Source: Actinomycetota bacterium (lineage in GTDB: Bacteria > Actinomycetota > Acidimicrobiia > Acidimicrobiales > JAJPHE01). From it: 64,000 nt of DNA. Under the pieces are notes generated by a model. It worked only from the letters and a program-made list of their open reading frames with translations, searched no databases and had not been told where the DNA came from. The translations under genes and the position numbers were made by a program. Of this stretch, positions 22,202 to 61,779 are shown piece by piece; positions within the stretch are counted from its first letter, which is position 1; each line of letters starts with the position of its first letter. The stretch covers positions 1 to 64,000 of the forward strand of contig DAHUYE010000016.1 of assembly GCA_027315345.1 (NCBI GenBank), in the 5' to 3' direction.

Positions 22202-22313
22202 ATGCAGTTTGAACCGGCGCCCCCTTTTATATTTCAGAAGTGTTACGGAACGAATATATATTCACCACTAGTCGACAAAACACGAAATCCGGGGGTGTCT
22301 CTTCAAGTTGCAT
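22202..22313. repeat. 112-bp AT-rich element with terminal inverted repeats, copy 1
   Basis: A strongly AT-rich segment in a very GC-rich region. Its ends, ATGCAGTTTGAA (22202-22213) and TTCAAGTTGCAT (22302-22313), form an imperfect 12-bp terminal inverted repeat (10 of 12 pair). The centre has the 12-bp palindrome GAATATATATTC. In reverse complement it aligns without gaps over its full 112 bp to 61668-61779 (82 of 112 identical by my count; 43 of 50 in the core). It lies between the starts of the VIT gene and rlmN. It could be a MITE-like element or a conserved regulatory or structured site. Confidence 0.75.
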
Positions 22314-22407
22314 CCCTCATTCCGCGCCGCTCTCCGCGTCCGAACCTGGGGCGCAGGCCACGATCAGTGGCCGCCGAGCCGGAGAGGGGGGCCGGTAGGA
22401 TTGACCG

Positions 22408-23472
22408 GTGGCCCGATACGACCTGGGCCGGGAGGAGTTGGCCGAGCTCCTGGACGGTGAGCCCCGCTACCGGGTCGACCAGGTGTGGGACGCCCTCTAC
22501 CGCCAGCTGGTGTCTCCCGGTGAGCTGAGCTCGCTGCCGGCCAAGCTGCGGAGGCGGCTGGAGGCCGAGGAGGCCCTGTCGCCGGCGTTGAAGCCGGTGG
22601 CGGTCAGCCGGGCCGACCGGGGCAGCACCGTCAAGTGGCTCTGGGAGCTGGCCGACGGGGCCAGGGTGGAGACCGTGCTGATGGACTACGGGACCCGCTC
22701 GACGGTGTGCGTGTCGAGCCAGGCCGGCTGCGCCATGGGCTGCGGGTTCTGCGCCACCGGGCAGGCCGGCTTCACCCGCCACCTGAGCGTGGGCGAGATC
22801 GTGGAGCAGGTGGTGGCGGCCGGGGCGGCCCGGCGGGAGGCGGCCGACGGCCGGCCGCTGCGGCCCGGGAACGTCGTGTTCATGGGGATGGGCGAGCCCA
22901 TGGCCAACTACGCCCGGGTCTGGGCGGCGGTCGAGCGCCTGCATGGGGACCTGGGCATCTCGGCCCGCCACATCACCATTTCCACCGTGGGGGTGGTGCC
23001 CGGCATCCGGCGCCTGGCCAAAGAGAGCCTCCCGGTCAACCTGGCCATCTCCCTCCACGCCGCCAACGACGGGTTGAGAAACGAGCTGGTCCCGCTCAAC
23101 CGGCGCTATGCGATAGCCGAGCTGATGGCGGCGGCCCGGGACTACCTGGGTTCGACCGGCCGGCGGGTGTCCTTCGAGTGGGCCCTCATAGCCGGGGTGA
23201 ACGACCGGGCCCCGGACGCGGCCGAACTGGCCGATCTGGCCCTGCCCCTCGGCGCCCACGTCAACCTCATCCCGCTCAATCCGACCCCGGGCTATCCGAC
23301 CGTCGGTTCCAGCCCGGCGGCGGTGGCCGCCTTCCGGGACCGATTGGTGACCTTCGGGGTCAACGCCACCGTCCGGCGCAACCGGGGCACCCGGATCGAC
23401 GCCGCCTGCGGCCAGCTGGCCGCCCGGGAGGCGGTCCCGGTTCCGGTCGAGCTCGGAGTTGGGGCACACTGA
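22408..23472 (+). CDS. rlmN: Dual-specificity 23S rRNA/tRNA A2503/A37 methyltransferase
   Basis: Radical SAM methylase that puts a C2-methyl on adenine in 23S rRNA and some tRNAs. It is 354 residues from GTG 22408. The cluster motif is C108-x3-C112-x2-C115, followed by GNVVFMGMGEPMANY and the SLHAANDGLRNELVP strand. The methyl-carrying Cys is in GTRIDAACGQLA near the C-terminus. Its promoter must lie in or beside the AT-rich repeat element upstream. Confidence 0.96.
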   Translation: MARYDLGREELAELLDGEPRYRVDQVWDALYRQLVSPGELSSLPAKLRRRLEAEEALSPALKPVAVSRADRGSTVKWLWELADGARVETVLMDYGTRSTVCVSSQAGCAMGCGFCATGQAGFTRHLSVGEIVEQVVAAGAARREAADGRPLRPGNVVFMGMGEPMANYARVWAAVERLHGDLGISARHITISTVGVVPGIRRLAKESLPVNLAISLHAANDGLRNELVPLNRRYAIAELMAAARDYLGSTGRRVSFEWALIAGVNDRAPDAAELADLALPLGAHVNLIPLNPTPGYPTVGSSPAAVAAFRDRLVTFGVNATVRRNRGTRIDAACGQLAAREAVPVPVELGVGAH

Positions 23473-23477
23473 ATCGG

Positions 23478-23834
23478 ATGAGGAAGTCCCGCTGGATCAA
23501 CAACACCCAGCCCCAGACCCTTCAGGTGGCCGTCATCCTCCTGTACCTCAACGCCGCCTTCACCCTGCTCGGCTTCGGGACCGGCGGCCTCCTGCCCCTG
23601 CGCCTGCTGCTGGTGGCAGCCGAGGTCGGGGGCGGCTACGGCGTGGCCAACGAACGCAAGTGGGGTTACGGAGTCGCCATCGTGGCCGCCGTGATCCCGT
23701 TGGTCCTGCTCGTCCAGCTGTCGGGCGGTGCCATCTTCGGCCAGCTGCTGTTGAGCCTGATGATCCAGGTGGCCCTGATCGCCCTGCTGCTCCACCCCCA
23801 CAGTCGCTCCTACCAGCGCATCTGGTTCAAGTAG
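23478..23834 (+). CDS. Small integral membrane protein, 118 aa
   Basis: A protein from ATG 23478 with a basic N-terminus (MRKSRWINN) and four likely helices: AVILLYLNAAFTLLGFG, LLPLRLLLVAAEVGGGYG, GVAIVAAVIPLVLLVQLSG and GQLLLSLMIQVALIALLL. It ends in a basic tail. It follows rlmN by 5 bp and is probably cotranscribed. I recognise no family function. Confidence 0.72.
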   Translation: MRKSRWINNTQPQTLQVAVILLYLNAAFTLLGFGTGGLLPLRLLLVAAEVGGGYGVANERKWGYGVAIVAAVIPLVLLVQLSGGAIFGQLLLSLMIQVALIALLLHPHSRSYQRIWFK

Positions 23835-23853
23835 CCGCCGGAGCGGGCGGGCC

Positions 23854-24081
23854 CTAATCCCCGGGGTCGGGCGGCTTGAGGTCCGGATAGAGGTGCTCGA
23901 GGGTGCCGGGCACGATCCGGGACGACTCGATGAAAACGTCCACATCGGCGGCTTTGAGGCGGATGACCCGGCCGAATTTGTAAGCCGGCACCAGACCCTC
24001 GTCGATGAAGCGATAGAGGGTGCGCAGGGTCACGCCCACCCGCTGGGCGGCGTCCCTGGTGCTCAGCCACTCCGTTTCCAT
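23854..24081 (-). CDS. Excisionase/MerR-like helix-turn-helix protein
   Basis: A 75-residue DNA-binding protein of the HTH_17 / excisionase-domain type: WLSTRDAAQRVGVTLRTLYRFIDEG is the winged-helix recognition unit and AYKFGRVIRLKAADVDVFI the wing. Similar small actinobacterial proteins include BldC-like regulators. There is no integrase nearby, so a regulatory role is likelier than phage excision. It sits downstream of hemW on the same strand with a 39-bp gap. Confidence 0.8.
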   Translation of the reverse strand: METEWLSTRDAAQRVGVTLRTLYRFIDEGLVPAYKFGRVIRLKAADVDVFIESSRIVPGTLEHLYPDLKPPDPGD

Positions 24082-24120
24082 CGGCCGAGCGTAACCCCAG
24101 GGTCCCCGTGCCCGTCGGGG

Positions 24121-25200
24121 CTATCTGAGCCGGACGGCCACCTCATTGGCCAGGAGCCGGCCCCGGGGCGTGAGAACGGCTCGCCCGTTGGCGTCGTCCA
24201 GCTGGACCAGGCCCTCGTCCAGGAGGACGGGCAGATCGGCCAGGGCCTCGGCCGGGACGCCGGTGCGGGTGCGCAGGGCCAGGGTCAGGGCCTCGGTGGC
24301 CCGGGTGGGACCGTCCAGTTCCTCCCCGGCCGCCTCGGTGGAAAGGCCGGCCGTCACGGCACGGATGTAGCGCTCGGGAGTCCGCAGGTTCCACCAGCGC
24401 CGGCCCCGGCGGTGGGAGTGGGCGGCGGCCCCGAAGCCGAGGTAGTCGCCCTGGGACCAGTACAGGAGATTGTGGCGGCACTCGTGTCCGGGCCGGGCGA
24501 AGTTGGAGATCTCATAGCAGTCCAGGCCGGCCGCCCCCAGGGCCTCGACGGCGGCCAGGTACATGTCGGCTTGGAGGTCGGGGTCCGGGTGGCGCTCGGG
24601 CTGGCCGGCCAGAGGGGTCCCCGGCTCCACCGTCAGGGCATAGGCACTGATGTGGGGCGGGCCCAGGTCGAGCAGCCCCCGCAGGGTCGCCTCCCAGGAG
24701 ACCAGGGTCTCCCCGGCCACCCCGTAGATGAGGTCGAGGTTGAAAGACGCAAAACCGGCCCGCTGCACGGCGGCCACGGCCGGGGCCACGTTGGCCGGGG
24801 TATGGGTCCGGCCCAGTCCGGCCAGCACGGAGGGATCCAGGCTCTGGACCCCCATGCTGATACGGGTGACGCCGCCCTGGCGGTAGGCGGCCATGAGGTC
24901 GTCATCGACGGTGTCGGGGTTGCACTCCACGGTCACCTCGGCCCCCGGGGCCAGGGGGATGAGGGCCAGGGCGGCCGTGAGGCCCTCGGCGGGGACCAGG
25001 GAAGGGGTGCCCCCGCCGAAGAAGACGCTGGTGGCCTCGACCAGGCGGCCTTCGGACACCGCCAGCCCGATCTCGGTGGAGAGGGCGTGGAGGTAGGCGG
25101 CGGTCAATTCGCCCCGGTCGTCCCAGGTGGCGAAGGCGCAGTAGCCGCAGCGGGCGGCGCAGAAAGGTATGTGGACGTAGACCCCGAAGGGGTCGTTCAG
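24121..25200 (-). CDS. hemW: Heme chaperone HemW-like radical SAM protein, apparent CTG start
   Basis: Radical SAM protein of the HemW group (coproporphyrinogen-oxidase-like), thought to deliver heme. The cluster motif C-x3-C-x2-C (CAARCGYC) lies at residues 14-21 only if translation starts upstream of the first standard start codon (TTG 25107). No ATG, GTG or TTG occurs in frame between the motif and the upstream stop-free region I could read; CTG 25200, overlapping the bldD-like stop as CTGA, gives LNDPFGVYVHIPFCAARC, the expected N-terminus. Other motifs: FFGGGTPSLV, EVTVECNPDT. Length 359 residues. Confidence 0.88.
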   Translation of the reverse strand: MNDPFGVYVHIPFCAARCGYCAFATWDDRGELTAAYLHALSTEIGLAVSEGRLVEATSVFFGGGTPSLVPAEGLTAALALIPLAPGAEVTVECNPDTVDDDLMAAYRQGGVTRISMGVQSLDPSVLAGLGRTHTPANVAPAVAAVQRAGFASFNLDLIYGVAGETLVSWEATLRGLLDLGPPHISAYALTVEPGTPLAGQPERHPDPDLQADMYLAAVEALGAAGLDCYEISNFARPGHECRHNLLYWSQGDYLGFGAAAHSHRRGRRWWNLRTPERYIRAVTAGLSTEAAGEELDGPTRATEALTLALRTRTGVPAEALADLPVLLDEGLVQLDDANGRAVLTPRGRLLANEVAVRLR

Positions 25201-25766
25201 CGGTGGAGGCAGAGGCCCAGGTCGTCCAGGCGCTCGCGCATGGCCACGGCCGAGAGGTCGAAGAGGCGGGCCACGGCCTGGATGTCCTCGGCCCGGATGG
25301 TGAGCACCCGGCCGTTGAAGTCCTGGCGCTGGACCTGGATGGAGGCCAGGTAGCGGCGCAGCAGCTCGCGCTCGGGGCCCTCGATGACCTCGAGGCGGGA
25401 CAGGTCGATGACGACCTTCCCATCCAGGGCGCCGGGGGCGCCGGCGGCACCCGCTGCGACGAACTGGGCCCGGGCGGCCGGCTCGTCCATGGTCAGATCG
25501 ATGAGGCCGGGGCCCCAGCCCGGCGCCGGGGTCGGCTTGGGCAGGAGCTGGTCGACGGGGACGTTGTAGATGGCGGCGAGCCGCTGGAGGCGGGGCACGG
25601 AGATGGACCGCTCACCGCGTTCGTAGGCGCCCAGGACGGAGGCTTTGAACTCCTTGTCGGAGCGGGCCTCGACGGCCTGGAGGGACAGGCCCTTCTGTTT
25701 CCTCACGTCACGGAGTCGCTCGCCCACTAGGCGGGCGTATCCCGGGTCGTCCCACTCTTCCGTCAT
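25197..25766 (-). CDS. BldD-like XRE-family regulator with c-di-GMP motif
   Basis: A 189-residue regulator. The N-terminal XRE helix-turn-helix (ERLRDVRKQKGLSLQAVEAR to ASVLGAYERGERSISV) closely follows the Streptomyces BldD layout, with NVPVDQLLP after it. The C-terminal domain contains RQD at 147-149, eight residues, then RAED at 158-161: exactly the RxD-x8-RxxD signature through which BldD binds tetrameric c-di-GMP. In Streptomyces BldD represses development. Here it is coupled to hemW by a CTGA overlap. c-di-GMP binding is inferred from the motif. Confidence 0.88.
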   Translation of the reverse strand: MTEEWDDPGYARLVGERLRDVRKQKGLSLQAVEARSDKEFKASVLGAYERGERSISVPRLQRLAAIYNVPVDQLLPKPTPAPGWGPGLIDLTMDEPAARAQFVAAGAAGAPGALDGKVVIDLSRLEVIEGPERELLRRYLASIQVQRQDFNGRVLTIRAEDIQAVARLFDLSAVAMRERLDDLGLCLHR

Positions 25767-25876
25767 TCGGAAACCTTACCACGCTTAGTGCCAATTACCA
25801 GGGACCAAACCTGCTGTTTCCGGGCCGTTTCCCTGCCCATATGTCCGGGAAGGTTCGATCTGCCACTGAGAGTGTT

Positions 25877-26689
25877 CTAACTTAAGAGGCCGGCCCGGGC
25901 CAGGCCGAGCACGGTGGCGGCGGCCACGGCGGCCGTTTCGGTGCGCAAAACGGTAGGCCCCAGGCCCACCCGGACCAGGCCGGCCGGGAGCTCCCCGTCC
26001 GCCCATCCCCCTTCGGGCCCGATCAGGATCCGGGGCTGGGCCAGGCCGGGCCCATGGGGGGCCCCCGGCTCAGCGGCGGCCCAGCCCGGCGCCCAGCCCG
26101 GCGCCCAGCCCGGCGCCCAGCCCGGCGCCCAGCCTGCCGCCCCTCGGGCGGCCGAGGGCGGGACCACGCCCGACGCCGCCTCCCCGGCCGACGCCGGCGG
26201 CTGGAGCAGCTGGGCCACGGTGAGAGGTCCGGCCAGGCTGGGTAGCCGGGTGAGGCGGGCCTGCATGGCCGCCTGGCGGATGATCCGGCGGAGCCGGGCC
26301 GTGCCCCGGGAGGCCCGGTCCCCGTCCCAGCGGACCACGGAGCGGGCGGCGTCCAGGACGATGATCTCATCGACGCCCAGCTCGGTCACCTTCTGTACGG
26401 CCCAGTCGCCCCGATCGCCCTTGGGCAGGGCGATGGCCAGGCCCAGGGCCGGCTGGGGGGCCGGGTCAACCGAGATCGGCCCCTCGGCCTCCACCCCGGA
26501 CGGGGTCAGACGGCCCAGGCGCCAGGCCCCGGCCCCGTCGGAGAGGCCCACCGCCTCCCCGGGCCGGAGGCGCAGGACGCGGGTGAGGTGGTGGGAGTCG
26601 TCTTCGTCGAGTTCGGGGGCGTCCAGGTCGGCCACGAAGACGTGGGCCGGGGCCGAGCGCAGCTCGGGATGGGGACCGGAGCTGCTCAC
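25877..26689 (-). CDS. rsmE: 16S rRNA m3U1498 methyltransferase RsmE with repeat insertion
   Basis: SPOUT-fold methyltransferase for U1498 of 16S rRNA, 270 residues from GTG 26689. Family motifs: SHHLTRVLRL near the N-terminus, LPKGDRGDWAVQKVTELGV, and the knot residues ILIGPEGGWADGEL and VLRTETAAVAA. Between the central strand and the knot it carries a roughly 45-residue low-complexity insertion built from five PGWA-type units, encoded by a 12-bp tandem repeat; most RsmE proteins lack it. It is last in hrcA-dnaJ-rsmE. Confidence 0.93.
   Translation of the reverse strand: MSSSGPHPELRSAPAHVFVADLDAPELDEDDSHHLTRVLRLRPGEAVGLSDGAGAWRLGRLTPSGVEAEGPISVDPAPQPALGLAIALPKGDRGDWAVQKVTELGVDEIIVLDAARSVVRWDGDRASRGTARLRRIIRQAAMQARLTRLPSLAGPLTVAQLLQPPASAGEAASGVVPPSAARGAAGWAPGWAPGWAPGWAPGWAAAEPGAPHGPGLAQPRILIGPEGGWADGELPAGLVRVGLGPTVLRTETAAVAAATVLGLARAGLLS
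26080..26139. repeat. 12-bp tandem repeat inside rsmE
   Basis: Four perfect copies of cccagcccggcg (26080-26127) and a fifth with two changes (26128-26139). The unit keeps the frame, adding PGWA blocks to a surface insertion, so copy number can change without disrupting the enzyme. Confidence 0.9.
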
Positions 26690-26693
26690 CGGC

Positions 26694-27860
26694 TCAGCGG
26701 AAGGCCGAGCGGATCCGGGCCCTTATCCCCCCGGAGTCGGGCGGGTTGACCTCCTCGCCCCGCTCGGCGGCGAACTGACGCAGCAGCTCCTCCTCCGCCT
26801 TCGACAGCCCGTTGGGCACGTCCACGACCACCGGCACCAGCAGGTCGCCCCGGCCCCGGCCGTCGGTGCGGGGCACCCCCCGGCCCCTGAGCTTGAAGAC
26901 GCGTCCGCTCTGGGTGCCCGGCGGCACCTCCAGCTCCTCGTCCCCGTCCAGGGTCTGGAAGGGCATCCGGACCCCGAGGGCGGCCTGGGCCATGGAGACG
27001 TGGACGGTCTGGATGAGGTCGTAGCCCTCCCGCTGGAACCGCTCATGGGGCGAGACCATGAGATGCACGTACAGATCCCCGGGCGGACCGTTGCGAGGCC
27101 CGACCGGCCCCCGACCGGTGAGGCGCAGGGTCACCCCGTGGTCCACGCCGGCGGGCACGTCCACCTGCCAGGTGCGGGTCTCGCTGCGCCGGCCGTCCCC
27201 GCCGCAGTCGACACAGGGGCTGCGGACCTCTTCGCCCAAACCACCGCAGCGCTGGCAGGGGGCGGCGGTCACGACCTGGCCCAGGATGGACTGGCGCACC
27301 CGGCGGACCTCCCCGGCCCCGTCGCAGGCCGAGCAGCGGGTGGGCGTCGATCCGGGCCGGGCCCCGCTGCCCGAGCAGGTGGTGCAGACCACGGCGGTGC
27401 GGACGGAGACCTCCTTCTGGGCCCCGAAGACGGCTTCCTCGAAGCTCAGCTGCAGGGCCACCTCGGCATCCGCCCCCCGGGGATGGGGCGAAGGCCGCCG
27501 CCCCGCCCCCCCGAAACCTCCGCCTCCGGCGCCGCCGAAGAAGGCATCGAAGATGTCGTTGAGCCCCCCGCCCCCGAAGAAGGCGTTGGGGTCCATACCC
27601 CCCGGCCCGGCTCCACCGGCCCGGGCCCCGTCGGGGCCGAACATGTCGTAGCGGCGCCGGCGCTCGGGGTCGCGCAGGGTCTCGTAGGCCACCGTGACCG
27701 CCTTGAAGCGCTCCTCGGCCTCGGCGTTGGGCGTGGACCCGTGGGTGTCGGGGTGGAGCTGGCGGGCCAGGCTGCGGTAGGCCCGCTTGATCTCGTCCTC
27801 GGAGGCGTTGCGGCTGACCCCGAGCAGCCCGTAGTAGTCGTCAGAGGCGGCCGGGCTCAT
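26694..27860 (-). CDS. dnaJ: Chaperone DnaJ
   Basis: Hsp40 co-chaperone, 388 residues. The J domain has HPD in RQLHPDTH, followed by a Gly/Phe region (FFGGGGLNDIFDAFF). Four zinc-binding CxxCxGxG repeats are intact: CTTCSGSG, CSACDGAG, CQRCGGLG and CVDCGGDG. The ATG 27860 overlaps the hrcA stop (ATGA), so expression follows the CIRCE-controlled hrcA promoter. Confidence 0.97.
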   Translation of the reverse strand: MSPAASDDYYGLLGVSRNASEDEIKRAYRSLARQLHPDTHGSTPNAEAEERFKAVTVAYETLRDPERRRRYDMFGPDGARAGGAGPGGMDPNAFFGGGGLNDIFDAFFGGAGGGGFGGAGRRPSPHPRGADAEVALQLSFEEAVFGAQKEVSVRTAVVCTTCSGSGARPGSTPTRCSACDGAGEVRRVRQSILGQVVTAAPCQRCGGLGEEVRSPCVDCGGDGRRSETRTWQVDVPAGVDHGVTLRLTGRGPVGPRNGPPGDLYVHLMVSPHERFQREGYDLIQTVHVSMAQAALGVRMPFQTLDGDEELEVPPGTQSGRVFKLRGRGVPRTDGRGRGDLLVPVVVDVPNGLSKAEEELLRQFAAERGEEVNPPDSGGIRARIRSAFR

Positions 27861-28867
27861 CCTTCCTCCAGCCGGCGGTCCAGGCGCTGGCTGACCACCG
27901 CCACCGCCGCCAGGGCCTGGGGGTAGTTCATCCGGGTCGGGCCCAGGACCCCGATGGTGCCCTGGCCGTCCCCGCCGGCGCCGCCGTAGGGGGCCACCAC
28001 CACCGCGCACTCGGCCAGCGGGAGCAGGCCGTGCTCATGGCCGATGGCCACCGACAGACCCCGGTCCAGGACGTCCCGGAGCAGGGAGACCACCACGTAC
28101 TGCTGTTCCAGGGCCCCCAGCACGCTGCGGACGGTGTCGACGGCGTCGAAGGCCGAGGCCATGCGGGAGGCGCCCCCCAGGAAGACCTGCTCGTGATCGG
28201 GGCCGGTGGTGTCGCTCAGGGCGTGGGTGGCCAGGCCGGCCAGGCGGTCCAGCAACTCGTCCCCGGTGGCGGGCAGCACTGGCATGTCCAGCGCCACCCG
28301 GCCCACCAGATGGGCGGAAAGGTGGGCGGACAGGGCCCCGAGCTGCTCGGGGGCGACCTCCTCGGCCAGTTCCAGGCTGTGCTTGACCACGCTGCCGTTG
28401 GACAGGACGGCCACCACCAGGGCCAGCTTGGGGGCCAGGCTGACCACCTGGACCGAACGCAGGCTGGCCGCCTCGGTGGGCGGGCTGACCACCACGGCGG
28501 CGTAGGAGGTCATCTGGGACAGCAGCCGGGAGGTGTCCTGGAGCATCTGCTCCAACTCCCCGTGGGCCTTGGCGAAGAACTCCCGGACCTGCTGGCGGGC
28601 GGCCGGGTCCAGGGGCCCGGCCTGCAGCCGATCGACGAAGAACCGGTATCCCTTGTCCGTCGGTATCCGCCCGGCCGAGGTGTGGGGCTGGACCAGGAAG
28701 CCTTCCTTCTCCAGGGCGGCCAGCTCGTTGCGGACGGTGGCCGAGGACACGGGCACGTCCGGGCGGCCGGCCACGTGGCCGGAGCCGACCGGCTGGGCCG
28801 TTTCGATGTACTCCTCGACGACGGCCCTCAGGATGGCCGCCTTGCGATCGTCCAGCTCGGAGTCCAC
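27857..28867 (-). CDS. hrcA: Heat-inducible repressor HrcA
   Basis: Represses class I heat-shock genes by binding CIRCE. The winged helix is at the N-terminus (AILRAVVEEYIETAQPVGS, then VSSATVRNELAALEKEG and SAGRIPTDKGYRFFVD). I choose GTG 28867 with AAGGAG 6 nt upstream; GTG 28873 would sit directly on that site. It is 336 residues. It is autoregulated through the CIRCE at 28893-28919 and leads hrcA-dnaJ-rsmE. Confidence 0.95.
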   Translation of the reverse strand: MDSELDDRKAAILRAVVEEYIETAQPVGSGHVAGRPDVPVSSATVRNELAALEKEGFLVQPHTSAGRIPTDKGYRFFVDRLQAGPLDPAARQQVREFFAKAHGELEQMLQDTSRLLSQMTSYAAVVVSPPTEAASLRSVQVVSLAPKLALVVAVLSNGSVVKHSLELAEEVAPEQLGALSAHLSAHLVGRVALDMPVLPATGDELLDRLAGLATHALSDTTGPDHEQVFLGGASRMASAFDAVDTVRSVLGALEQQYVVVSLLRDVLDRGLSVAIGHEHGLLPLAECAVVVAPYGGAGGDGQGTIGVLGPTRMNYPQALAAVAVVSQRLDRRLEEG

Positions 28868-28892
28868 AGGCACCTCCTTCTACCGGGCCGCG

Positions 28893-28919
28893 TTGGCACT
28901 CGAGTCTACCGAGTGCCAG
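28893..28919 (-). promoter_or_regulatory. CIRCE operator of hrcA-dnaJ
   Basis: TTGGCACTC, nine bases, GAGTGCCAG. This matches the CIRCE consensus TTAGCACTC-N9-GAGTGCTAA with the inverted repeat complete apart from its outermost base pair. It lies 26 bp upstream of the hrcA start, as expected for the HrcA target. Confidence 0.92.
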
Positions 28920-28954
28920 ACCGGGCCCCGTGGCCCGGGGATAGCCTGCCGCCC

Positions 28955-29626: not shown

Positions 29627-29659
29627 GGGGCCCGGCCGGGACCGGCTAGAAAGTCGCCC

Positions 29660-32403: not shown

Positions 32404-32421
32404 GGGTCTGGGGCAGCCGGC

Positions 32422-33339: not shown

Positions 33340-33451
33340 CCCTCCAGCCTACGGGCTGGATATGGCCGTCAACTGCTAGCATCTGCGGGTTCCCGGATGG
33401 CCCCAAGGCCCCGGTGACACCCTTCTCTTCGTAAGCGAGCGCCGGACAGTC

Positions 33452-35599: not shown

Positions 35600-35607
35600 C
35601 GGGCGGC

Positions 35608-45275: not shown

Positions 45276-46077
<802 letters not shown>

Positions 46078-48551: not shown

Positions 48552-48590
48552 TGGTCCTATTGTAGCCGGGTATGGTCCATTTAGGACCAG
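48551..48590 (-). promoter_or_regulatory. Operator-like inverted repeat over the small operon's promoter
   Basis: CTGGTCCTA (48551-48559) and TAGGACCAG (48582-48590) form a perfect 9-bp inverted repeat; a third, near-palindromic ATGGTCCAT (48572-48580) lies between. The repeat spans the TACAAT box and touches the start codon, a layout expected of an autorepressor site. Confidence 0.55.
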
Positions 48591-48919
48591 ACAATCACGA
48601 GTGATTCTTAGTCTCGACCGGCCGACCAGGGGCCCAGCCGACCTGTCCCCGAAGATCGCCCTGGAGAACCCACCTGCCCTGAAACGCCGGCTGGCGGGCA
48701 CCCTCTCGGTGACCGATGTCTGTGGAGGCGAAGGTCGTCGCGTCGCGTGCCCTGACCGGAACCCCTCGACACCCCCTTGGGCCGAATCGCATTCAAGAGG
48801 TAGAGGGTTCGATCCCCTTGGCCTCCACCGAGAACCTTGATTGGCTCGCTTCGACGGTGTAGTGATGGCTTGGGCCGATACCCTCCCGATGAGGGATCAC
48901 AGCGAGAGACGAGGTAGAG
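48552..48919. other. Intergenic stretch holding operator and att-like repeat
   Basis: Apart from the inverted repeat at 48551-48590 and the tRNA-derived repeat at 48789-48835, I see no gene in this stretch. Reading frames that cross it are short and lack family features. Confidence 0.6.
48789..48835 (+). repeat. 47-bp direct repeat, distal att-like copy of the tRNA-Ala 3' end
   Basis: Matches 46031-46077 at 45 of 47 positions. It contains the T arm and 3' acceptor strand but no D arm or anticodon, so it is not a working tRNA; base 66 is changed so that it would mispair. It marks the far end of the insert. Confidence 0.85.
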
Positions 48920-49588: not shown

Positions 49589-49671
49589 GCCGGCTGCGCT
49601 CCGGCGTCAGCGGACCAACCGGACAGGCAGCCCGATAGCCGACCCGGTCCCCCCGGCCGTATTGTGCGGCG

Positions 49672-50004: not shown

Positions 50005-50070
50005 GCCGCCGGCCGGCCAGGCCGGGTTGTCCCGCACAATGCTCTTTCGCCCGACCACTGTCGAGGGCTC

Positions 50071-51411: not shown

Positions 51412-51454
51412 GCCGACCCGGGGCCACCATGGCCACCGGACCAGCGCCGGGAGA

Positions 51455-51808: not shown

Positions 51809-51882
51809 CGAGTATCCACCCTTCCCGTCCGTCCCGGCCATACCTTGAACCGTGGTCGACACGGGTAATCCTGATGTCTGGA

Positions 51883-51960
51883 CGCTTTGTCGACAATCAG
51901 CACTAAGGGTCATTTGTCCTGGTCATTAGTGACTAAAGCGACAAATTGGACCAAGGATGG
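51883..51960. promoter_or_regulatory. Divergent promoter region with inverted repeats
   Basis: TTTGTCGA (51886-51893) faces its complement GCGACAAA (51938-51945) around GTCATTAGTGAC (51922-51933), itself nearly palindromic. The region lies between the receiver gene and the membrane-protein pair and is AT-richer than its flanks. A shared operator is plausible. Confidence 0.4.
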
Positions 51961-51977
51961 GCCGTTACCCTTGGAGG

Positions 51978-53935: not shown

Positions 53936-53946
53936 CCAATCACCCC

Positions 53947-54780: not shown

Positions 54781-54787
54781 CCCGTCC

Positions 54788-57316
54788 CTAGCCCAGCCGC
54801 ACGTTGACCCGGCCGTGAATGGCGGCCGCCGAGGACCCGACCCGGACCTCGGCCGTCCCGCCCTCCTGGGCCCAGCCCACCTTTGCGTCCCAGTGGGCCA
54901 GCTCCCGGGCCGGCACGTCCAGGACGACCTCGGCACTCTGACCCGGGTCCAGCCAGACCTTCTCGAAAGCGGCCAGGGCCTGTTCGGGCCGCTCCAGCAT
55001 CGAGCCGGGGCGGGCGACATAGAGCTGGACCACCTCGGCTCCGGGCCGCCCGCCCGTGTTGGTGACCGACGCCGTGGCCCGAAGGCCCCCGTCACCGGTC
55101 GGCGCCGCCGTCACCGGGCCGTAGGCAAAGGTCGTGTAGGACAAGCCGTGACCAAACCAGAACCGTGGTTCCACCGAGTGCTTGAGGTAGTGGCGATAGC
55201 CCAGGTGGAGTCCTTCCGAGTACGGGGCCACCCCCGGCTCCAGTCCCGGGCTCTGTCCCGGCCAGAAGGCGTAGGCGGGGGTGTCCTCGATGCGGGCGGC
55301 CAGGGTGGTCGGCAGCCGGCCCGAGGCCTCGGTGGCCCCGGTCAGCACATCGGCCAGGGCCCGGCCCGCCTCCTGACCGGCGCACCACAGCTGCACCACG
55401 GCCGGGACCTCCTCCGCCCAGCCCATCTCCACCGGGCTGCCGGTGTTGACCACCACCACTGTCTTGGGGTTGGCCGCCGCCACCCGCCGGATCAGATCCT
55501 CCTGGACGGCGGGCAGCGGATAGAAGCTCCGGTCCCGGCCCTCGCTCTCGATGTCACCGTCCAGGCCGACCACCACCACAGCGGCGTCGGCGGAAGCGGC
55601 CAGAGCCGCGGCCGCCGCCGGGCGGGCCGGATCGGATGGCTCCTCGATACGGATGTCACAGCCGAGCAGGAAGGGCATCGGGGTGGGCGGGACGATCTCG
55701 ACCGTCACCGCCGTGTCCTGGCCCAGCTCCAGGGGGAGCGCGACCGGCTCCCGCTCGGCCTCATCCCCGCCTTCGTAGGCAACGGCTCCGTCGATCAGCA
55801 CCCGGATGCGACCGCCGCCCCGGATATGCAGATGGTGCAGGCCCGCCACCCGGGGCAGGTAGACCAGTTCGGCCGTGGCCGACCAGTCATCGGCGTCCAC
55901 GCCGGGCAGCGGGGGGCGCCCGCCCAACCACATGAGGTTCGAGCGCCTGACCACCCGGCGCTGGATGGCCTCGCCCGCCAGCGCCCGCCCGGCAAAGAAG
56001 GACAGCAGCAGACCTTCGGCGCCGGCGTCGGGCCGGCCGTCGGGCACCTTCATCCGGCTGCGCTCCAGGGCGGCGGCCACCGTGGCCGGCGGGCAGCCGG
56101 CGTCATGGACGACCTCCACCCCGGGCAGGGCCTCGGTCAGGCCCTTGAGCGGGCTGATGAGGTACGGGGGCCGGACCCGGGCACTGCCCCCGCCCATGGC
56201 GTGGACCTCGGCGGCGTTGGGCCCGATGACCGCCAACCGCTTCAGGCCACCCGCCGCCAGCGGCAAAAGTGGGGCTCCCTCCACGGGCTCGTTGCGCAGC
56301 AGCACGATCCCCTCCGCCGCCGCCCGCCGGGCCACCTCGGTCCGGGCCGGATCGTCATCGAAGCGTTCCTCGGCCCCGCCCGGCCCGGCGTCCGCTCGCG
56401 CGGCCCCATCCAGGACGCCGGCGCCTGCTCGTCCGGTCCCATCCAGGACGCCGGTACGATCGGCCAGCCGCAGCACCCGCTCCGCCGCCCGCCGGATGTC
56501 ATCGATCGACGCCGTGCCCTCCGCCACCGCCCGGGCCAGCTTCGGGCCCCGATGGGCGGACGGCCCCGGCATCTCGATATCCAGCCCGGCCGCCAGCGCC
56601 TCGGCGGTGGTGTGGGTTCCGCCCCAGTCGGAGATGACGGCGCCATCCCAGCCCCACTCGTCCCGCAGCAGCTCGGTCAGCAGCCACGGATGCTCCCCGC
56701 ACCAGGTGCCCCACAGCTTGTTGTAGGCCGACATCACCGACCACGAGCCCGCCTCCAACAGGGCGGCCTCGAAGGGTCGCAGATAGACCTCGCGCAACAC
56801 CCGCGGCTCCACCTCGCTCGACATGGTGAAGCGCTCGAACTCATAGTCGTTGGCCACCAGATGCTTGACGCAGCTGGCCACCCCCTCGCTCTGCACCCCC
56901 CGGATGTAGGCCACCGCCATCCGGGCGGTGAGGAACGGGTCCTCGCTGAAACACTCGAAGTTGCGCCCCCCGAGAGGGCCCCGGTGCAGGTTGACGGTGG
57001 GGGCCAGGTGGACCTGGGCGCCCTTGGAGTGGGCTTCCTGGCCCAGGGCCCGGCCCACCTCCTCCACCAGGGCCGGATTCCAGGTGGAGGCCAGAGCCGT
57101 GCCGGAAGGGAATAGGAGGGAAGGCGCCCCGCCGACGAAGTCCACCCCCCGGATCCCGTTGGGCCCGTCGGACATCTTGAGGGTTCCCAGCCCGATGGCG
57201 GGGATGGGCCGTATGGTCCAGGTGTCCTGTCCGGCCAGGAGGCCGATCTGCGCCTCGGTGTCGAGCTCCCCGGCCAAGCCGGCCAGGTGGTCGCCCGCCT
57301 CCGGTACTGCTGTCAA
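54788..57316 (-). CDS. GH3 beta-glucosidase with PA14 domain
   Basis: An 842-residue glycoside hydrolase family 3 enzyme without a signal peptide. The N-terminal barrel has GLGTLKMSDGPNGIRG, the KHLVANDYEFER stretch and nucleophile Asp in AVISDWGGTH. A PA14-like insert (LHHLHIRGGGRIRVLIDG) sits in the second half and a C-terminal Fn3-like domain ends it. An 11-residue repeat (GVLDGTGRAGA/GVLDGAARADA) comes from a perfect 17-bp direct repeat at 56405 and 56438. It likely cleaves beta-glucosides in the cytoplasm. It lies 12 bp after rsfS. Confidence 0.93.
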   Translation of the reverse strand: MTAVPEAGDHLAGLAGELDTEAQIGLLAGQDTWTIRPIPAIGLGTLKMSDGPNGIRGVDFVGGAPSLLFPSGTALASTWNPALVEEVGRALGQEAHSKGAQVHLAPTVNLHRGPLGGRNFECFSEDPFLTARMAVAYIRGVQSEGVASCVKHLVANDYEFERFTMSSEVEPRVLREVYLRPFEAALLEAGSWSVMSAYNKLWGTWCGEHPWLLTELLRDEWGWDGAVISDWGGTHTTAEALAAGLDIEMPGPSAHRGPKLARAVAEGTASIDDIRRAAERVLRLADRTGVLDGTGRAGAGVLDGAARADAGPGGAEERFDDDPARTEVARRAAAEGIVLLRNEPVEGAPLLPLAAGGLKRLAVIGPNAAEVHAMGGGSARVRPPYLISPLKGLTEALPGVEVVHDAGCPPATVAAALERSRMKVPDGRPDAGAEGLLLSFFAGRALAGEAIQRRVVRRSNLMWLGGRPPLPGVDADDWSATAELVYLPRVAGLHHLHIRGGGRIRVLIDGAVAYEGGDEAEREPVALPLELGQDTAVTVEIVPPTPMPFLLGCDIRIEEPSDPARPAAAAALAASADAAVVVVGLDGDIESEGRDRSFYPLPAVQEDLIRRVAAANPKTVVVVNTGSPVEMGWAEEVPAVVQLWCAGQEAGRALADVLTGATEASGRLPTTLAARIEDTPAYAFWPGQSPGLEPGVAPYSEGLHLGYRHYLKHSVEPRFWFGHGLSYTTFAYGPVTAAPTGDGGLRATASVTNTGGRPGAEVVQLYVARPGSMLERPEQALAAFEKVWLDPGQSAEVVLDVPARELAHWDAKVGWAQEGGTAEVRVGSSAAAIHGRVNVRLG

Positions 57317-57328
57317 AGCTCCCCCGTT

Positions 57329-57724
57329 TCAGGCCCGGGCGGCTTCGGACCGACCCGGTCCGTCATCCTCCCAGATCAGGCGGGGGGCGTCGGCCCACAG
57401 ACGCTCGAGGTCGTAGTAGCGCCTGGTCTCGTCCAGGAAGACGTGGACCACCACGTCCCCGTAGTCGAGGAGGATCCAATGGGCGTCGGAGAGGCCCTCC
57501 ACCCGCAGCGGAGCCCGGTCCATGGCCGTTCGGACCTGAGCTTCCACCTCCTCCGCGATCGTGCGCACCTGGCGGTCATTGCTCCCGCTGGTGATGACGA
57601 AGGCGTCGGTAATGGACAGGAGGGGCCCCACTTCGAGGACGATGGTGTCCTCGCCCTTCTTGTCAGAGGCGGCCCGGGCGGCCGTGGCGGCCAGGGTGGT
57701 GGATTCGGTTTGGGATCGAATCAT
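57329..57724 (-). CDS. rsfS: Ribosome silencing factor RsfS
   Basis: Binds L14 of the 50S subunit and blocks subunit joining in stationary phase. It is 131 residues from ATG 57724: AARAASDKKGEDTIVLEVG, SITDAFVITSGSNDRQV, HWILLDYGDVVVHVF and YYDLERLWADAPRL. Its 5' end overlaps the nadD 3' end by 62 bp in another frame. Order nadD-rsfS is usual in actinobacteria. Confidence 0.95.
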   Translation of the reverse strand: MIRSQTESTTLAATAARAASDKKGEDTIVLEVGPLLSITDAFVITSGSNDRQVRTIAEEVEAQVRTAMDRAPLRVEGLSDAHWILLDYGDVVVHVFLDETRRYYDLERLWADAPRLIWEDDGPGRSEAARA

Positions 57725-58307
57725 CTGTGGACTCAGAGTACAGACGCCGGGAGCGGATGAGGGTGACTACCGGGGCCGGGACCAGAAAATCCAGGGGACG
57801 GCCGTCGATGACCCGGGCCCGGAGATCGGTGCTGGAGATGTCCAGGGAGGGCACTTCGACCACTGCGGCCCGCCAGCCGGCAGGGAGACGGGGCCGGCTG
57901 CCGGGCCGCTTGACCACCGCCAGGGTGCAGCCGTCCCTGACCGCCTCCACCCGTTCCCAGGTGTCCAGGTCCCCGACCACGTCGGCCCCCACCACCAGGA
58001 ACAGCTCGGCGCCGGGATAGGCCTCCCGGAGCTCGGCCAGGGTGTCGGCGGTGTAGGAGGCGCCGCCCCGGTCCATCTCCATCCGGCTGGCCTCCAGACC
58101 GGGGATGCCCTCCACGGCCGCCTCCACCATGGCCAGCCGGTCCTCGGCCGGGCTCACCACCCGCCGGCCCGCCTTCTGCCAGGGCACGTTGGCCACCACC
58201 AGCAGCAGGCGGTCCAGGCTCAAGCTGTACCGCACGTTGACGGCCGCGGCCAGATGCCCGACATGCACGGGATCGAAGGTCCCCCCGAACACCCCGACCC
58301 GGGTCAC
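57663..58307 (-). CDS. nadD: Nicotinate-nucleotide adenylyltransferase
   Basis: Adenylates NaMN in NAD synthesis, 214 residues. The nucleotidyltransferase HxGH motif is in GGTFDPVHVGHLAAA and the ISSTDLRARV signature is near the C-terminus. About 20 residues after the usual end (beyond LIRSRRLYSES) are read from inside rsfS, an unusually long overlap. It lies 4 bp after the LLM gene. Confidence 0.95.
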   Translation of the reverse strand: MTRVGVFGGTFDPVHVGHLAAAVNVRYSLSLDRLLLVVANVPWQKAGRRVVSPAEDRLAMVEAAVEGIPGLEASRMEMDRGGASYTADTLAELREAYPGAELFLVVGADVVGDLDTWERVEAVRDGCTLAVVKRPGSRPRLPAGWRAAVVEVPSLDISSTDLRARVIDGRPLDFLVPAPVVTLIRSRRLYSESTDDSIPNRIHHPGRHGRPGRL

Positions 58308-58311
58308 CGCC

Positions 58312-59241
58312 TCACTGGCCGGCGAGCTTCTTCACCACCTCGGCGAAGGCCTCCATCTCCGGCTCGTGCACCACCCAGTAGGTGAAGCCCCATCGCTCGC
58401 GGCGGGACTCGATGGTCTCGCAGATCTGGTCCACCGTTCCGACCAGGGCGATAGGAATGGCCCCGGCGTCTTCCGGGCTCAACCCGAAGCCGGGGGCCAG
58501 GTTGGCCAGCACCTCATCCCGGTCGATCCCGACCTGGACGATGAAGGTCAGGCACTGCAGCTCCAGGTCATCGAAGCGCTCCCCGGCGCCTTCTTTGAGC
58601 CAGGCCAGCTTCTGGTCGAACTTGGCCGGGGCCACCTCCACCGCCATCTCGGCCCCGACCACCCCGGCGGCCAGGTTGGGGTTGATCCCGACTATGTCCG
58701 CCTCTCTCCCGGCTATCCCCAGAACCCTCGGGCTGCCGCCCCCGATCAGGAGCTTGGGCCGGGGCGCGGTGTGGGGCCGGGGCAGGCCCTGCGCGGCCCG
58801 CACGTTGTAGTGGGTGCCGGCCTGGGTGGCGCTGCCGTTTTCCCACATTCCCTTGAGGATCCCGAGGGCCTCCTCGAAACGCTCGACCCGGACGCCGGGC
58901 CGGTCATAGGGGATACCCGATTCCTCGTAGTCCGTCTTCATCCACCCCGCCCCCAGGCCGATCTCCAGCCGGCCCTCGGCCACCAGGTCAAGGGTGGCGA
59001 TCTCCTTGGCCAGCACCACCGGATGGCGGTAGTCGTTGTCCAGCACCAGGGTCCCCACGTTGAGGGTCGTGGTCGCCTCCGCCGCCGAGGTCAGGGCGAT
59101 GAGGGGGGCCCACTGATCACCGAAGTGATCGGGGATGAACAGGGTGGAATATCCGAGATCCTCGACCTTGCGGGACAACTCCCGCCAGGCCTTGGCCGTG
59201 GGCGCCCCGGACACCTGGACAGCAAATCGGAATGGCTTCAC
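58312..59241 (-). CDS. LLM-class F420-dependent oxidoreductase
   Basis: A 309-residue LLM protein from GTG 59241; a longer frame is possible but is not conserved in style. It shows DLGYSTLFIPDHFGDQWAP, TLVLDNDYRHPVVLAKEIA, GRLEIGLGAGW and LLIGGGSPRVLGIAGR. It resembles the TIGR03621 group of probable F420-dependent enzymes. It leads the minus-strand run nadD-rsfS-GH3-ldt-htrA and is divergent from the DAHP synthase gene. Confidence 0.88.
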   Translation of the reverse strand: MKPFRFAVQVSGAPTAKAWRELSRKVEDLGYSTLFIPDHFGDQWAPLIALTSAAEATTTLNVGTLVLDNDYRHPVVLAKEIATLDLVAEGRLEIGLGAGWMKTDYEESGIPYDRPGVRVERFEEALGILKGMWENGSATQAGTHYNVRAAQGLPRPHTAPRPKLLIGGGSPRVLGIAGREADIVGINPNLAAGVVGAEMAVEVAPAKFDQKLAWLKEGAGERFDDLELQCLTFIVQVGIDRDEVLANLAPGFGLSPEDAGAIPIALVGTVDQICETIESRRERWGFTYWVVHEPEMEAFAEVVKKLAGQ

Positions 59242-59299
59242 CCGCCGAGCGTAGGTGAAAGGCTTTGCCCGGGGCCTCCCGGTAGCGGAGACTAGGGGG

Positions 59300-60640
59300 G
59301 TGAGTGAGTGGAGCCCCCGGAGCTGGAAGGACCGCCCCGTCGAGCAGCAGCCCGACTGGCCCGACGCCGAGGCCCTCGAGCGCGTGGTCAAGTCCCTGGG
59401 GGCGCTGCCGCCCCTCGTCTTCGCCGGGGAGGCCCGCAAGCTCACCGCCAAGCTCGGGGAGGTGGCCGCCGGCCGGGCTTTTCTGCTCCAGGCCGGGGAC
59501 TGCGCCGAGTCTTTCAGCGACTACTCGGCCGACTCCATCCGGGACAAGCTCAAGGTCATCCTGCAGATGGCCGTGGTCCTCACCTACGGCTCGGGAGTGC
59601 CGGTGGTGAAGCTGGGCCGCATCGCCGGCCAGTTCGCCAAGCCCCGTTCCTCCCCCACCGAGACCGTTGACGGAGTGGAGCTCCCGTCCTTCCGGGGCCA
59701 CATCGTCAATGACGATGCCCCTATAGCCGCACTGCGCGTCCCCGACCCCGACCGGCTCATAGCCGCCTACCACCAGTCGGCTTCGACCCTCAACCTCTTG
59801 CGGGCCTTCACCACCGGGGGCTTTGCCGATCTGTCCCAGGTCCACGCCTGGAACCAGGAGTTCGTGACCACCAGCACCGCCGGCCGGCGCTACGAGGCCA
59901 TAGCCGCCGAGATCGACCGGGCCCTGCGCTTCATGCGGGCCTGTGGGATCGAACTGGAGGCGGAGGCCAGCCTGCACCAGGTCGACTTCTGGACCAGCCA
60001 CGAAGCCCTCATCCTCGGCTACGAGGAAGCCCTCACCCGGGAGGACTCCCTCACCAACGATTGGTACGACTGCTCGGCCCACATGCTCTGGATCGGCGAA
60101 CGGACCCGGGCCGTGGACGGCGCCCACGTCGAGTTCCTCCGGGGCGTGCACAACCCGGTGGGCGTGAAGCTGGGCCCGACCGCCACCGGGGCCGAGGCGG
60201 TCGCCCTGTGCGAGACCCTCAACCCCGATCGGGTCCCGGGCCGGATCACCCTCATCTCCCGCATGGGCGCCAAAACGGTGGAGACGGCCCTGCCGCCCCT
60301 CATCCAGGCCGTCAGCGACGCCGGCCATCCCGTCCTGTGGGTGTGCGATCCCATGCACGCCAACACCTTCACCAGTGAGAACGGCCGCAAGACCCGCCAT
60401 TTCGAGGACGTCCTGGGGGAAATCCGGGGTTTCTTCGCCGTGCACAAGGCGCTCGGAACCTGGCCCGGCGGCGTGCACGTGGAGTTGACCGGTGACGACG
60501 TGACCGAGTGCCTGGGCGGCGCCGAAGAAGTCTTCGAGGACGACCTCCCCCTGCGCTACACCACCACCTGTGATCCTCGCCTCAACGCCCGCCAGTCCAT
60601 CGACCTGGCCTTCCGCGTCGCTGAACTGCTCCGGGCCTGA
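59300..60640 (+). CDS. aroG: Class II (plant-type) DAHP synthase
   Basis: First enzyme of the shikimate pathway, joining PEP and erythrose 4-phosphate. It is 446 residues from GTG 59300. Class II motifs: LLQAGDCAESF, GRIAGQFAKPRSS, HNPVGVKLGPTA, ISRMGAKTVE and the metal-binding WVCDPMHANTF. The 5' extension in the same frame to 59255 is less likely. Its product supplies chorismate to trpE in this window. Confidence 0.96.
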   Translation: MSEWSPRSWKDRPVEQQPDWPDAEALERVVKSLGALPPLVFAGEARKLTAKLGEVAAGRAFLLQAGDCAESFSDYSADSIRDKLKVILQMAVVLTYGSGVPVVKLGRIAGQFAKPRSSPTETVDGVELPSFRGHIVNDDAPIAALRVPDPDRLIAAYHQSASTLNLLRAFTTGGFADLSQVHAWNQEFVTTSTAGRRYEAIAAEIDRALRFMRACGIELEAEASLHQVDFWTSHEALILGYEEALTREDSLTNDWYDCSAHMLWIGERTRAVDGAHVEFLRGVHNPVGVKLGPTATGAEAVALCETLNPDRVPGRITLISRMGAKTVETALPPLIQAVSDAGHPVLWVCDPMHANTFTSENGRKTRHFEDVLGEIRGFFAVHKALGTWPGGVHVELTGDDVTECLGGAEEVFEDDLPLRYTTTCDPRLNARQSIDLAFRVAELLRA

Positions 60641-60663
60641 CTGCTCGCCCCTAGGGTGACCGG

Positions 60664-61593
60664 ATGCTCCTGCGCATCTTCACCGAGCCCCAGCAGGGGG
60701 CCAGCTATGACCAGCTCGTCCGCGTCGCCCAGACCGCCGAACGCCTCGGCTTCGACGCCTTCTTCCGTTCCGATCACTTCCTCCTCATGGGCAACGGTGA
60801 GGGCCTGCCCGGCCCGACCGATGCCTGGCTGACCCTGGGCGGCATCGCCCGGGAGACCGAGCGCATCCGCCTGGGGACCCTGGTCACCTCCTGCACCTTC
60901 CGGCTCCCCGGCCTGCTGGCCATCCAGGTGGCCCAGGTCGACGCCATGAGCGACGGCCGGGTCGAACTCGGACTCGGCACCGGCTGGTACGACCAGGAAC
61001 ACACCGCCTACGGAGTCCCCTTTCCTCCTCTGGGCGAGCGCTTCGAACGCCTGGGCGAGCAGCTGGAGATCATCACCGGCCTGTGGCGCACGCCGCCGGG
61101 CGAGCGTTTCAGCTACTCCGGCACCCACTACCAGCTGGCCGACAGCCCGGCCCTGCCCAAACCGGTCCAGGCCGGCGGACCGCCCATCATCATCGGCGGC
61201 GGCGGGCCCAAGCGCACCCCCCGCCTGGCCGCCCGCTTCGCCTCCGAGTTCAACCTTCCCTTCGCCCCGCCCGACTTCTGCGCCTCCCAGTACGCCCGGG
61301 TGCGCCAGGCCTGTGAGGAGGCGGGGCGGGACCCGGGCGAGATCCGCTTCTCCGCCGCCGTGGTGGTCTGCGCCGGCTCGGATGAGGCCGAGGTCGCCCG
61401 CCGGGCGGCTCGGATCGGCCGGGACCCGGCCGAACTCCGCAAGAACGGCGCCGCCGGCACCCCCGCCGAGGTGATCGAGGCCCTGGGCCGCTGGAAGGAC
61501 GCCGGGGCCGAGGTCGGCTACCTCCAGGTCCTCGACGTCGATGACCTCGACCACCTGGAGCTCCTGGCCGCCGAGGTCATGCCCGCCGTCTGA
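60664..61593 (+). CDS. LLM-class F420-dependent oxidoreductase
   Basis: A 309-residue LLM protein of a TIGR03560-like type: LGFDAFFRSDHFLLM, LGTLVTSCTFRLPGLLA, DAMSDGRVELGLGTGW and IIIGGGGPKRTPRLAARFA. It follows the DAHP synthase gene by 23 bp and is probably cotranscribed. A link with the shikimate pathway is not known to me. The cofactor is inferred from family. Confidence 0.9.
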   Translation: MLLRIFTEPQQGASYDQLVRVAQTAERLGFDAFFRSDHFLLMGNGEGLPGPTDAWLTLGGIARETERIRLGTLVTSCTFRLPGLLAIQVAQVDAMSDGRVELGLGTGWYDQEHTAYGVPFPPLGERFERLGEQLEIITGLWRTPPGERFSYSGTHYQLADSPALPKPVQAGGPPIIIGGGGPKRTPRLAARFASEFNLPFAPPDFCASQYARVRQACEEAGRDPGEIRFSAAVVVCAGSDEAEVARRAARIGRDPAELRKNGAAGTPAEVIEALGRWKDAGAEVGYLQVLDVDDLDHLELLAAEVMPAV

Positions 61594-61667
61594 CTTCCCG
61601 GCCGCCCCGCACCGGGATCTGCCACCGGGGGTGGCCACTCACCACGGACGGCGGCGCAGAATGGGGC

Positions 61668-61779
61668 ATGCCACTTGGCGACACCACCCGACACTTTGAT
61701 GTTTGTCGACTGGTGGCGAACAAATATTCGTTCCGTAACCATTCTGAAATATAGAATCGACCGACGCTTCAAGTTGTAT
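61668..61779. repeat. 112-bp AT-rich element with terminal inverted repeats, copy 2
   Basis: The partner of 22202-22313, in the opposite orientation. Its ends are ATGCCACTTGGCG (61668-61680) and CTTCAAGTTGTAT (61767-61779). The core 61701-61750 matches 43 of 50 bases of the reverse complement of copy 1, including GTCGAC, TTCGTTCCGTAAC and TTCTGAAAT. Here it lies between two convergent 3' ends, where a promoter is not needed, favouring a mobile or structural element over a promoter. Confidence 0.75.

What the first reader, a model, noticed from the sequence alone, without database searches (positions are those of the whole stretch)
22202..61779. 112-bp inverted pair of AT-rich elements 39 kb apart
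Copies at 22202-22313 and 61668-61779 are exactly the same length and align without gaps in opposite orientation, with about 73% identity by my count and 86% over the central 50 bp. Each has imperfect terminal inverted repeats, and copy 1 has a perfect 12-bp central palindrome. They stand out as AT-rich islands in a very GC-rich region and contain no gene. One is in a promoter gap, the other between convergent ends, which argues against a simple shared promoter. This could be a short non-autonomous mobile element, a conserved structured RNA or DNA site, or a replication or nucleoid feature.
Basis: seen in the sequence. Interest (0 to 1): 0.75.

Follow-up and report, generated by a model that had tools for sequence, protein, structure and literature searches.

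The report
Repeated DNA element between gene ends
The two matching stretches are two of sixteen scattered copies of a small gene-free DNA element in a GC-rich bacterium, usually sitting where two genes end facing each other, and most likely a small non-autonomous insertion whose middle part is kept unusually constant.

Summary
The 112-bp copies are 73% identical in opposite orientation; similarity runs on to about 144 bp each: 22196-22339 (+) and 61642-61785 (-). They are two of 16 elements on 10 contigs of the 3.84-Mb genome: 12 with a left and a right end, three right-right palindromes, one solo right end. By my gene calls all 16 are intergenic; 9 lie between convergent genes, against 53 of 321 gene junctions in the same stretches (p = 3e-4). 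A 55-bp AT-rich core departs from consensus in 9% of positions, the arms beside it in 37%. No convincing relative was found in 396 other genomes of the order, a GTDB pattern scan (27), plasmids or phages (30, 31) or IMG/VR (25). Two sister genera lack it at both window loci. Folding and covariation give little support for a structured RNA. No target-site duplication or partner transposon was found. Best reading: a lineage-specific small intergenic repeat, comparable with ERIC or CIR, spread by insertion, with a constrained DNA core. Rival: a functional chromosomal DNA site.

The parts
22196..22339 (+). Element copy 1 (left-right type), full extent
   Evidence: Column information across 12 aligned left-right copies falls to background outside about -67..+76 of the core; the repeat finder arm 22196-22336
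61642..61785 (-). Element copy 2 (left-right type), full extent
   Evidence: Same alignment; the repeat finder arm 61645-61785
22225..22279 (+). Copy 1 conserved AT-rich core (-38..+16), 55 bp
   Evidence: 8.8% mean mismatch to consensus over 12 copies against 37% in adjoining arms; 31% GC
61702..61756 (-). Copy 2 conserved AT-rich core, 55 bp
   Evidence: Same
22202..22213 (+). Copy 1 left inverted-repeat box
22302..22313 (+). Copy 1 right inverted-repeat box (consensus TTCAAGTTGCAT)
   Evidence: 13.5% mismatch over 12 copies in this region
61668..61679 (-). Copy 2 right inverted-repeat box
61768..61779 (-). Copy 2 left inverted-repeat box
22358..22370 (.). CCAC-N5-GTGG dyad outside the right end of copy 1
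   Evidence: One of only two such sites in the 64-kb window, one beside each copy (3.4 expected by chance in the window as a whole)
61622..61634 (.). CCAC-N5-GTGG dyad outside the right end of copy 2
21463..22173 (-). VIT1-family gene flanking copy 1 (5' end faces the element)
   Evidence: Pfam PF01988, E 2e-60
22408..23472 (+). Radical SAM gene (RlmN-like; that name is recalled) flanking copy 1, 5' end faces the element
   Evidence: Pfam PF04055; one match in each sister genome, 76% and 70% identical
60664..61593 (+). Luciferase-like monooxygenase gene, 3' end faces copy 2; absent from this junction in both sister genera
   Evidence: Pfam PF00296; synteny
61854..63812 (-). VWA_CoxE ORF, 3' end faces copy 2 (start uncertain; my gene caller splits it at 63332/63340)
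   Evidence: Pfam PF05762; gene calls

Best explanation
A lineage-specific family of small (about 144 bp) gene-free intergenic elements that spread through this genome by insertion. Each left-right element has two ends: an outer box (about ATRCAACTTGAA on the left, TTCAAGTTGCAT on the right) at a nearly fixed distance from an inner box, the two ends meeting in an AT-rich dyad centre. I infer that a recombinase or transposase acting in trans bound the inner and outer boxes; no gene for it is attached to such ends in the assembly. Copies survive mainly downstream of genes, above all between convergent genes, where an insertion breaks neither a promoter nor a reading frame. Shown: copy number, anatomy, intergenic and 3'-end bias, absence from the sister genera held, constrained core. 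Inferred: spread by insertion, the enzyme in trans, the reason for the positional bias.
For: 16 elements on 10 contigs, in both orientations. Clean gap: 19 right-end arms at E <= 1e-16, then two partial matches at E 0.2 and 1.1 (150 of 1474 first-look candidates were scored). Modular ends: 12 left-right, 3 right-right, 1 solo right. By my gene calls all 16 are intergenic, 15 of 16 beside at least one gene 3' end, 9 convergent. Convergent gaps are short unless they hold an element: 42 of 44 without one are under 100 bp, the 9 with one are 109-312 bp. Syntenic gaps without the element: VIT1 / radical-SAM gap 234 bp here, about 132 and 130 bp in G001 and G002 (counted from the letters, start codons inferred); at copy 2 the sister junctions are about 23 and 5 bp (counted). 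No match in G001 or G002 at E <= 10. Neighbouring genes show no common function that I can see.
Against: No consistent target-site duplication in 12 copies. No transposase-bearing copy: every right end found belongs to a short element or is the solo end. The most constant part is the centre, not the tips, unlike a decaying transposon remnant, and 25 conserved bases lie outside the right inverted repeat. Copies differ much (mean pairwise identity 0.69, range 0.48-0.85), so no recent movement is seen. The sister genera are too divergent to show exact insertion junctions; in the VIT1 gap the size difference is about 103 bp, less than 144.
Confidence: 0.55

Rival explanations
1. A functional chromosomal DNA site: an architectural or nucleoid protein (or gyrase; binding of proteins to palindromic repeats is known for REP/BIME) binds the core, and copies are kept at convergent gene ends, for instance to separate converging transcription.
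For: Core mismatch 8.8% against 37% in the arms; almost no decayed relics; convergent bias; nearly fixed spacing between inner and outer boxes with variable letters between.
Against: No consistent orientation to local GC skew; not found in the closest genera held, so not an old housekeeping site; four of 16 elements (three right-right, one solo right) lack the left half of the core; copy 1 lies in a divergent promoter gap.
Confidence: 0.22
2. Bidirectional transcription terminators or mRNA 3'-end hairpins.
For: 15 of 16 lie beside a gene 3' end; right-right elements fold very strongly (z about -7 to -14); copy 1 and the copy at C7:148.8k fold better than shuffles (z -3.4; -4.0); a terminator-like match lies inside copy 2 at 61700-61722 (+), 0.5 expected.
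Against: Of the 12 left-right copies 10 have z between -2 and +1 on the left-to-right strand, and none is below -1.6 on the other; 2 of 9 consensus pairs covary and most of the core is unpaired; no terminator-like match inside copy 1 (the one found lies in the VIT1 gene); I see no T-run after the outer dyad.
Confidence: 0.1
3. A family of paralogous small RNA genes.
For: One sigma-70-like match TTCAGA-18-TATATT in copy 1 (0.0 expected).
Against: No such match in copy 2; no Rfam hit to the copies; little conserved structure; four elements lack the left half of the core.
Confidence: 0.05
4. Chance similarity or assembly artefact.
For: None found.
Against: 82 of 112 against a shuffle maximum of 51; E-values down to 4e-31 between copies on different contigs.
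Confidence: 0.01

Closest known systems
ERIC / IRU / RU-1 (enterobacteria, 127 bp)
   Same: Similar size, intergenic repeat with short terminal inverted repeats in several copies (PMC2229807, sections 4 and 10 read)
   Different: Unrelated host; the review lists a TSD and stable stem-loop transcripts; here no TSD was seen and most left-right copies do not fold beyond chance; convergent bias and a right-right variant here
CIR (Caulobacter CcrM-associated intergenic repeats, about 110 bp)
   Same: Intergenic only, about the same size, conserved DNA motif, only partly MITE-like (PMC2229807, section 7 read)
   Different: CIR are conserved between alphaproteobacterial species and carry GANTC at a loop; this family was found in one genome only
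REP / BIME
   Same: Units in inverted pairs or solo, extragenic, palindromic
   Different: REPs usually exceed 100 copies per genome (PMC2817692, start of abstract in the listing) and are short hairpins moved by RAYT (partly recalled); here 16 elements with arms of about 90 bp; RAYT not searched
MITE
   Same: Under 500 bp, AT-rich, intergenic, multicopy, inverted repeats (features from passages of PMC10969869)
   Different: No target-site duplication seen, no related autonomous element found, conserved centre, and conserved sequence outside the right inverted repeat

Membership tests
MITE | Total length under 500 bp, multicopy, AT-rich | tested here: met
   About 144 bp, 16 elements; window copies 44% and 46% GC over 112 bp in a window of 71% GC
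MITE | Terminal inverted repeats at the tips | tested here: inconclusive
   Inverted boxes match 12/18 and 10/18 in the window copies, but 25 conserved bases lie outside the right box
MITE | Flanking target-site duplication (said to wane with age, PMC10969869 passage) | tested here: not met
   No consistent direct repeat at the edges of 12 copies; the copies are diverged, so loss with age is possible
MITE | Derived from an autonomous element with the same ends | tested here: not met
   All 19 right-end arms found in the genome belong to the 16 short elements; assembly 97.7% complete, 106 contigs, so an unassembled copy is possible
MITE | Transcript forms a stable stem-loop | tested here: inconclusive
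   12 left-right copies: z -4.0 to +1.1 on the left-to-right strand, 10 of 12 between -2 and +1; 3 right-right copies -7 to -14; copy 1 z -3.4 at 112 bp
REP / BIME | Short hairpin unit in high copy number (over 100) | tested here: not met
   16 elements
REP / BIME | RAYT (Y1 transposase) in the genome | not tested
Rfam RNA family | Match at gathering score | tested here: not met
   Only a tRNA at 45997 in the window
ERIC | Sequence homology to ERIC | not tested
   No comparison with the ERIC consensus was made
Integron attC site | Conserved outer R sites with variable centre, in gene-cassette arrays (recalled) | tested here: not met
   Here the centre is the most conserved part and the elements are dispersed singly

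The most novel reading that the evidence does not exclude
A newly arisen, lineage-specific class of chromosomal DNA site: a 55-bp protein-binding core with paired ends, spread as a mobile repeat and then retained under selection at convergent gene ends, where it insulates converging transcription or organises the nucleoid.
Probability: 0.2. Interest if true: 0.65.

Novelty: new member of a known kind. Interest (0 to 1): 0.42.

Why it matters
The small bacterial repeats tabulated in the review read here come from Neisseria, enterobacteria, pneumococcus, Rickettsia, Caulobacter/Brucella and Yersinia (PMC2229807, Table 1). This family was found in one genome only among those searched. It makes 15 of the 28 AT-rich islands in the 334 kb examined, stretches that were chosen around elements apart from the window. 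It has two end types that combine as left-right or right-right, and a centre that has drifted far less than its arms. That makes it a usable case for asking when a small mobile repeat becomes a functional chromosomal site.

Tried and rejected
Structured RNA: folds of the 16 elements on both strands, RNAalifold on 12 copies and Rfam gave little support; against my reading, copy 1 (z -3.4) and the C7:148.8k copy (z -4.0) do fold better than shuffles. Autonomous partner: the right-end model over the whole genome found only the arms of the 16 elements (150 of 1474 candidates scored). A left-core pattern with up to 3 mismatches found 11 places, all of them known left-right copies (the twelfth, on C47, was missed), so no solo left or left-left copy was seen at that sensitivity; the reversed control pattern had 5 matches. 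Target-site duplications: scattered GC-rich 6-7-mers only, none consistent. Replication-strand bias: none. CCAC-N5-GTGG is not globally enriched: 101 sites in the genome against 766 for the reversed control, and 2 in the window against 3.4 expected. In 334 kb of local sequence, though, 14 are intergenic (22.6 kb) and 5 genic (311 kb), a marked excess at spacer 5 only; by position 11 of the 14 lie beside an element.

Relatives: DNA search of 98 relatives gave none. Among 396 other genomes of the order two weak partial hits (E 2e-4 and 4e-4) look like chance (stricter filters, 10 candidates scored per listed genome). The exact-pattern GTDB scan gave 7 single hits, about 15 expected by my own estimate, none extending; that tool may leave out the window's own genome and near ones. 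An exact left-core pattern in IMG/VR gave none; an inner-box dyad pattern there gave 17 stretches, none with the family's next bases. Plasmids and phages: none. The AT-rich structured stretch of G002 in the polyprenyl-synthetase gap is a different sequence, full-length only once in G002; the best match in the own genome is 22 bases at E 0.007. The AT-rich island at 51877-51961 does not align better than chance (best of four comparisons 39 of 500 shuffles). Literature searches found no named repeat of this kind in actinobacteria among the listed papers (one search had 605 papers, 10 listed); open-licence papers only.

Full report
What was checked. The two 112-bp stretches align without gaps in opposite orientation with 82 of 112 identities (73.2%); the best 50-bp stretch has 44 of 50 and the exact middle 50 has 41. 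Shuffled versions of copy 1 reached at most 51 of 112 on the + strand in 200 tries. The pair is the longest inverted repeat of the window, 141 nt against 57 nt for the next.

A genomic family. BLAST of copy 1 over the window's own genome (3.84 Mb, 106 contigs, 97.7% complete) gave 18 places. A sequence-only model of the right half, built from 19 arms, found those 19 arms at E <= 1e-16; the next matches were two partial ones at E 0.2 and 1.1, both at the left ends of known copies (150 of 1474 first-look candidates scored). The model was built from these arms, so their scores are partly by construction; the informative result is that nothing else lies near them. The arms make 16 elements on 10 contigs: 12 left-right elements, 3 right-right palindromes and 1 solo right end.

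Anatomy. Aligned on the core, conservation across the 12 left-right copies runs from about -67 to +76 and falls to background beyond, giving 22196-22339 (+) and 61642-61785 (-). Mean mismatch to consensus is 8.8% in the core (-38..+16), 37% in both adjoining arms, 30% in the left outer region, 13.5% in the right box, 21% in the spacer beyond it and 26% in the outer dyad. The 12 copies align over 144 columns without gaps, so the boxes keep their spacing while the letters between them change. In a genome of 71% GC an AT-rich core would not be expected to drift least; I read this as constraint on the DNA (inference).

The outer dyad. A CAC-N5-GTG dyad lies at +65 in 14 of 19 right arms; both window copies lack it there but have one at +96 and +85. 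In the 64-kb window the exact CCAC-N5-GTGG form occurs twice, once beside each copy, where 3.4 are expected overall. In 334 kb of own sequence it occurs 14 times in 22.6 kb of intergenic DNA and 5 times in 311 kb of genes, and among spacers 0-12 only spacer 5 shows a marked excess. Genome-wide it is not enriched (101 against 766 for the reversed control). Its role is unknown; a protein-binding dyad is as likely as a hairpin.

Position. Genes were called with a simple codon-usage script of my own. Of 30 proteins at or near the elements given to Pfam 29 had a hit; the exception is the right neighbour on C47, and not every neighbour was tested. All 16 elements are intergenic: 9 convergent, 6 tandem, 1 divergent, the last being copy 1. 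Among 321 gene junctions in the same stretches 53 are convergent, the 9 with elements included; 9 of 16 has a binomial p of 3.4e-4, or 6e-7 against intergenic length. The stretches were chosen around elements, so this background is local. Of 44 convergent gaps without an element 42 are under 100 bp; the 9 with one measure 109-312 bp. Two tandem assignments (C38, C90) rest on weak gene calls, though the C90 neighbour has a cupin hit.

Relatives. Two other genomes of the window's family appeared in the relatives list, each of another genus. They have no match at E <= 10, and a DNA search of all 98 relatives matched only the own genome. Of 397 genomes of the order searched, the own genome included, two others gave weak partial hits that look like chance. 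Both sister genomes keep the VIT1 / radical-SAM pair, with gaps of about 132 and 130 bp against 234 bp here and no element. At copy 2 both have the preceding gene (DAHP-synthase-like by recall) directly convergent with the VWA gene, gaps about 23 and 5 bp; here a luciferase-like gene plus the element lie between them. At a third site, the gap before the polyprenyl-synthetase gene, G002 has an unrelated structured AT-rich stretch and the G001 contig ends. No further syntenic pair was found in the G001 and G002 stretches at hand. In 412 kb of G002 there are 7 AT-rich islands; in 334 kb here there are 28, 15 of them elements. The two samples are not alike, since ours was chosen around elements.

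RNA or DNA. On the left-to-right strand the fold z-scores of the 12 left-right copies run from -4.0 to +1.1, 10 of 12 between -2 and +1; the other strand runs from -1.6 to +0.8. The three right-right palindromes fold strongly, as any palindrome must. RNAalifold finds 9 pairs, 2 with a kept change on both sides, and a covariation term of -0.36. This gives little support for a conserved RNA. A promoter-like match lies in copy 1 and a terminator-like one in copy 2; neither is shared by the other window copy.

Interpretation. The weight of evidence is for a dispersed repeat that spread in this lineage and whose ends carry bipartite binding boxes. I do not file it as a MITE, because target-site duplications and an autonomous parent were looked for and not found. 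It works most like ERIC or CIR repeats (PMC2229807: outline and sections 4, 7 and 10 read; PMC10969869: passages; PMC2817692: start of abstract in a listing).

Noticed in passing
window 51877-51961: AT-rich island in a divergent gap with inverted TTTGTCG...CGACAAA; resembles the family's inner box but does not align better than chance (39 of 500 shuffles at best).
   Followed up: partly
window 48555-48617: Another AT-rich island with an inverted GGTCCTA / TAGGACC pair.
   Followed up: no
window 60641-61853: A luciferase-like gene plus element copy 2 are together absent from the syntenic junction in both sister genera: possibly acquired as one piece.
   Followed up: partly
L072, about 9680-9760 (own genome C7, about 148.7 kb): A run of 9-bp GATGCGGGG repeats abuts the left end of one element and may have grown from its terminal GGGGGATGC.
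   Followed up: no
L124 2470-2590 (relative G002, C147): Strongly structured AT-rich stretch in a convergent gap (DNA fold z -5.5), at the locus where the own genome has an element; full-length once in G002.
   Followed up: partly
L074 8119-8270 (own genome C7, about 295.1 kb): Solo right end that stops at the central dyad and abuts the stop codon of a neighbouring gene.
   Followed up: no
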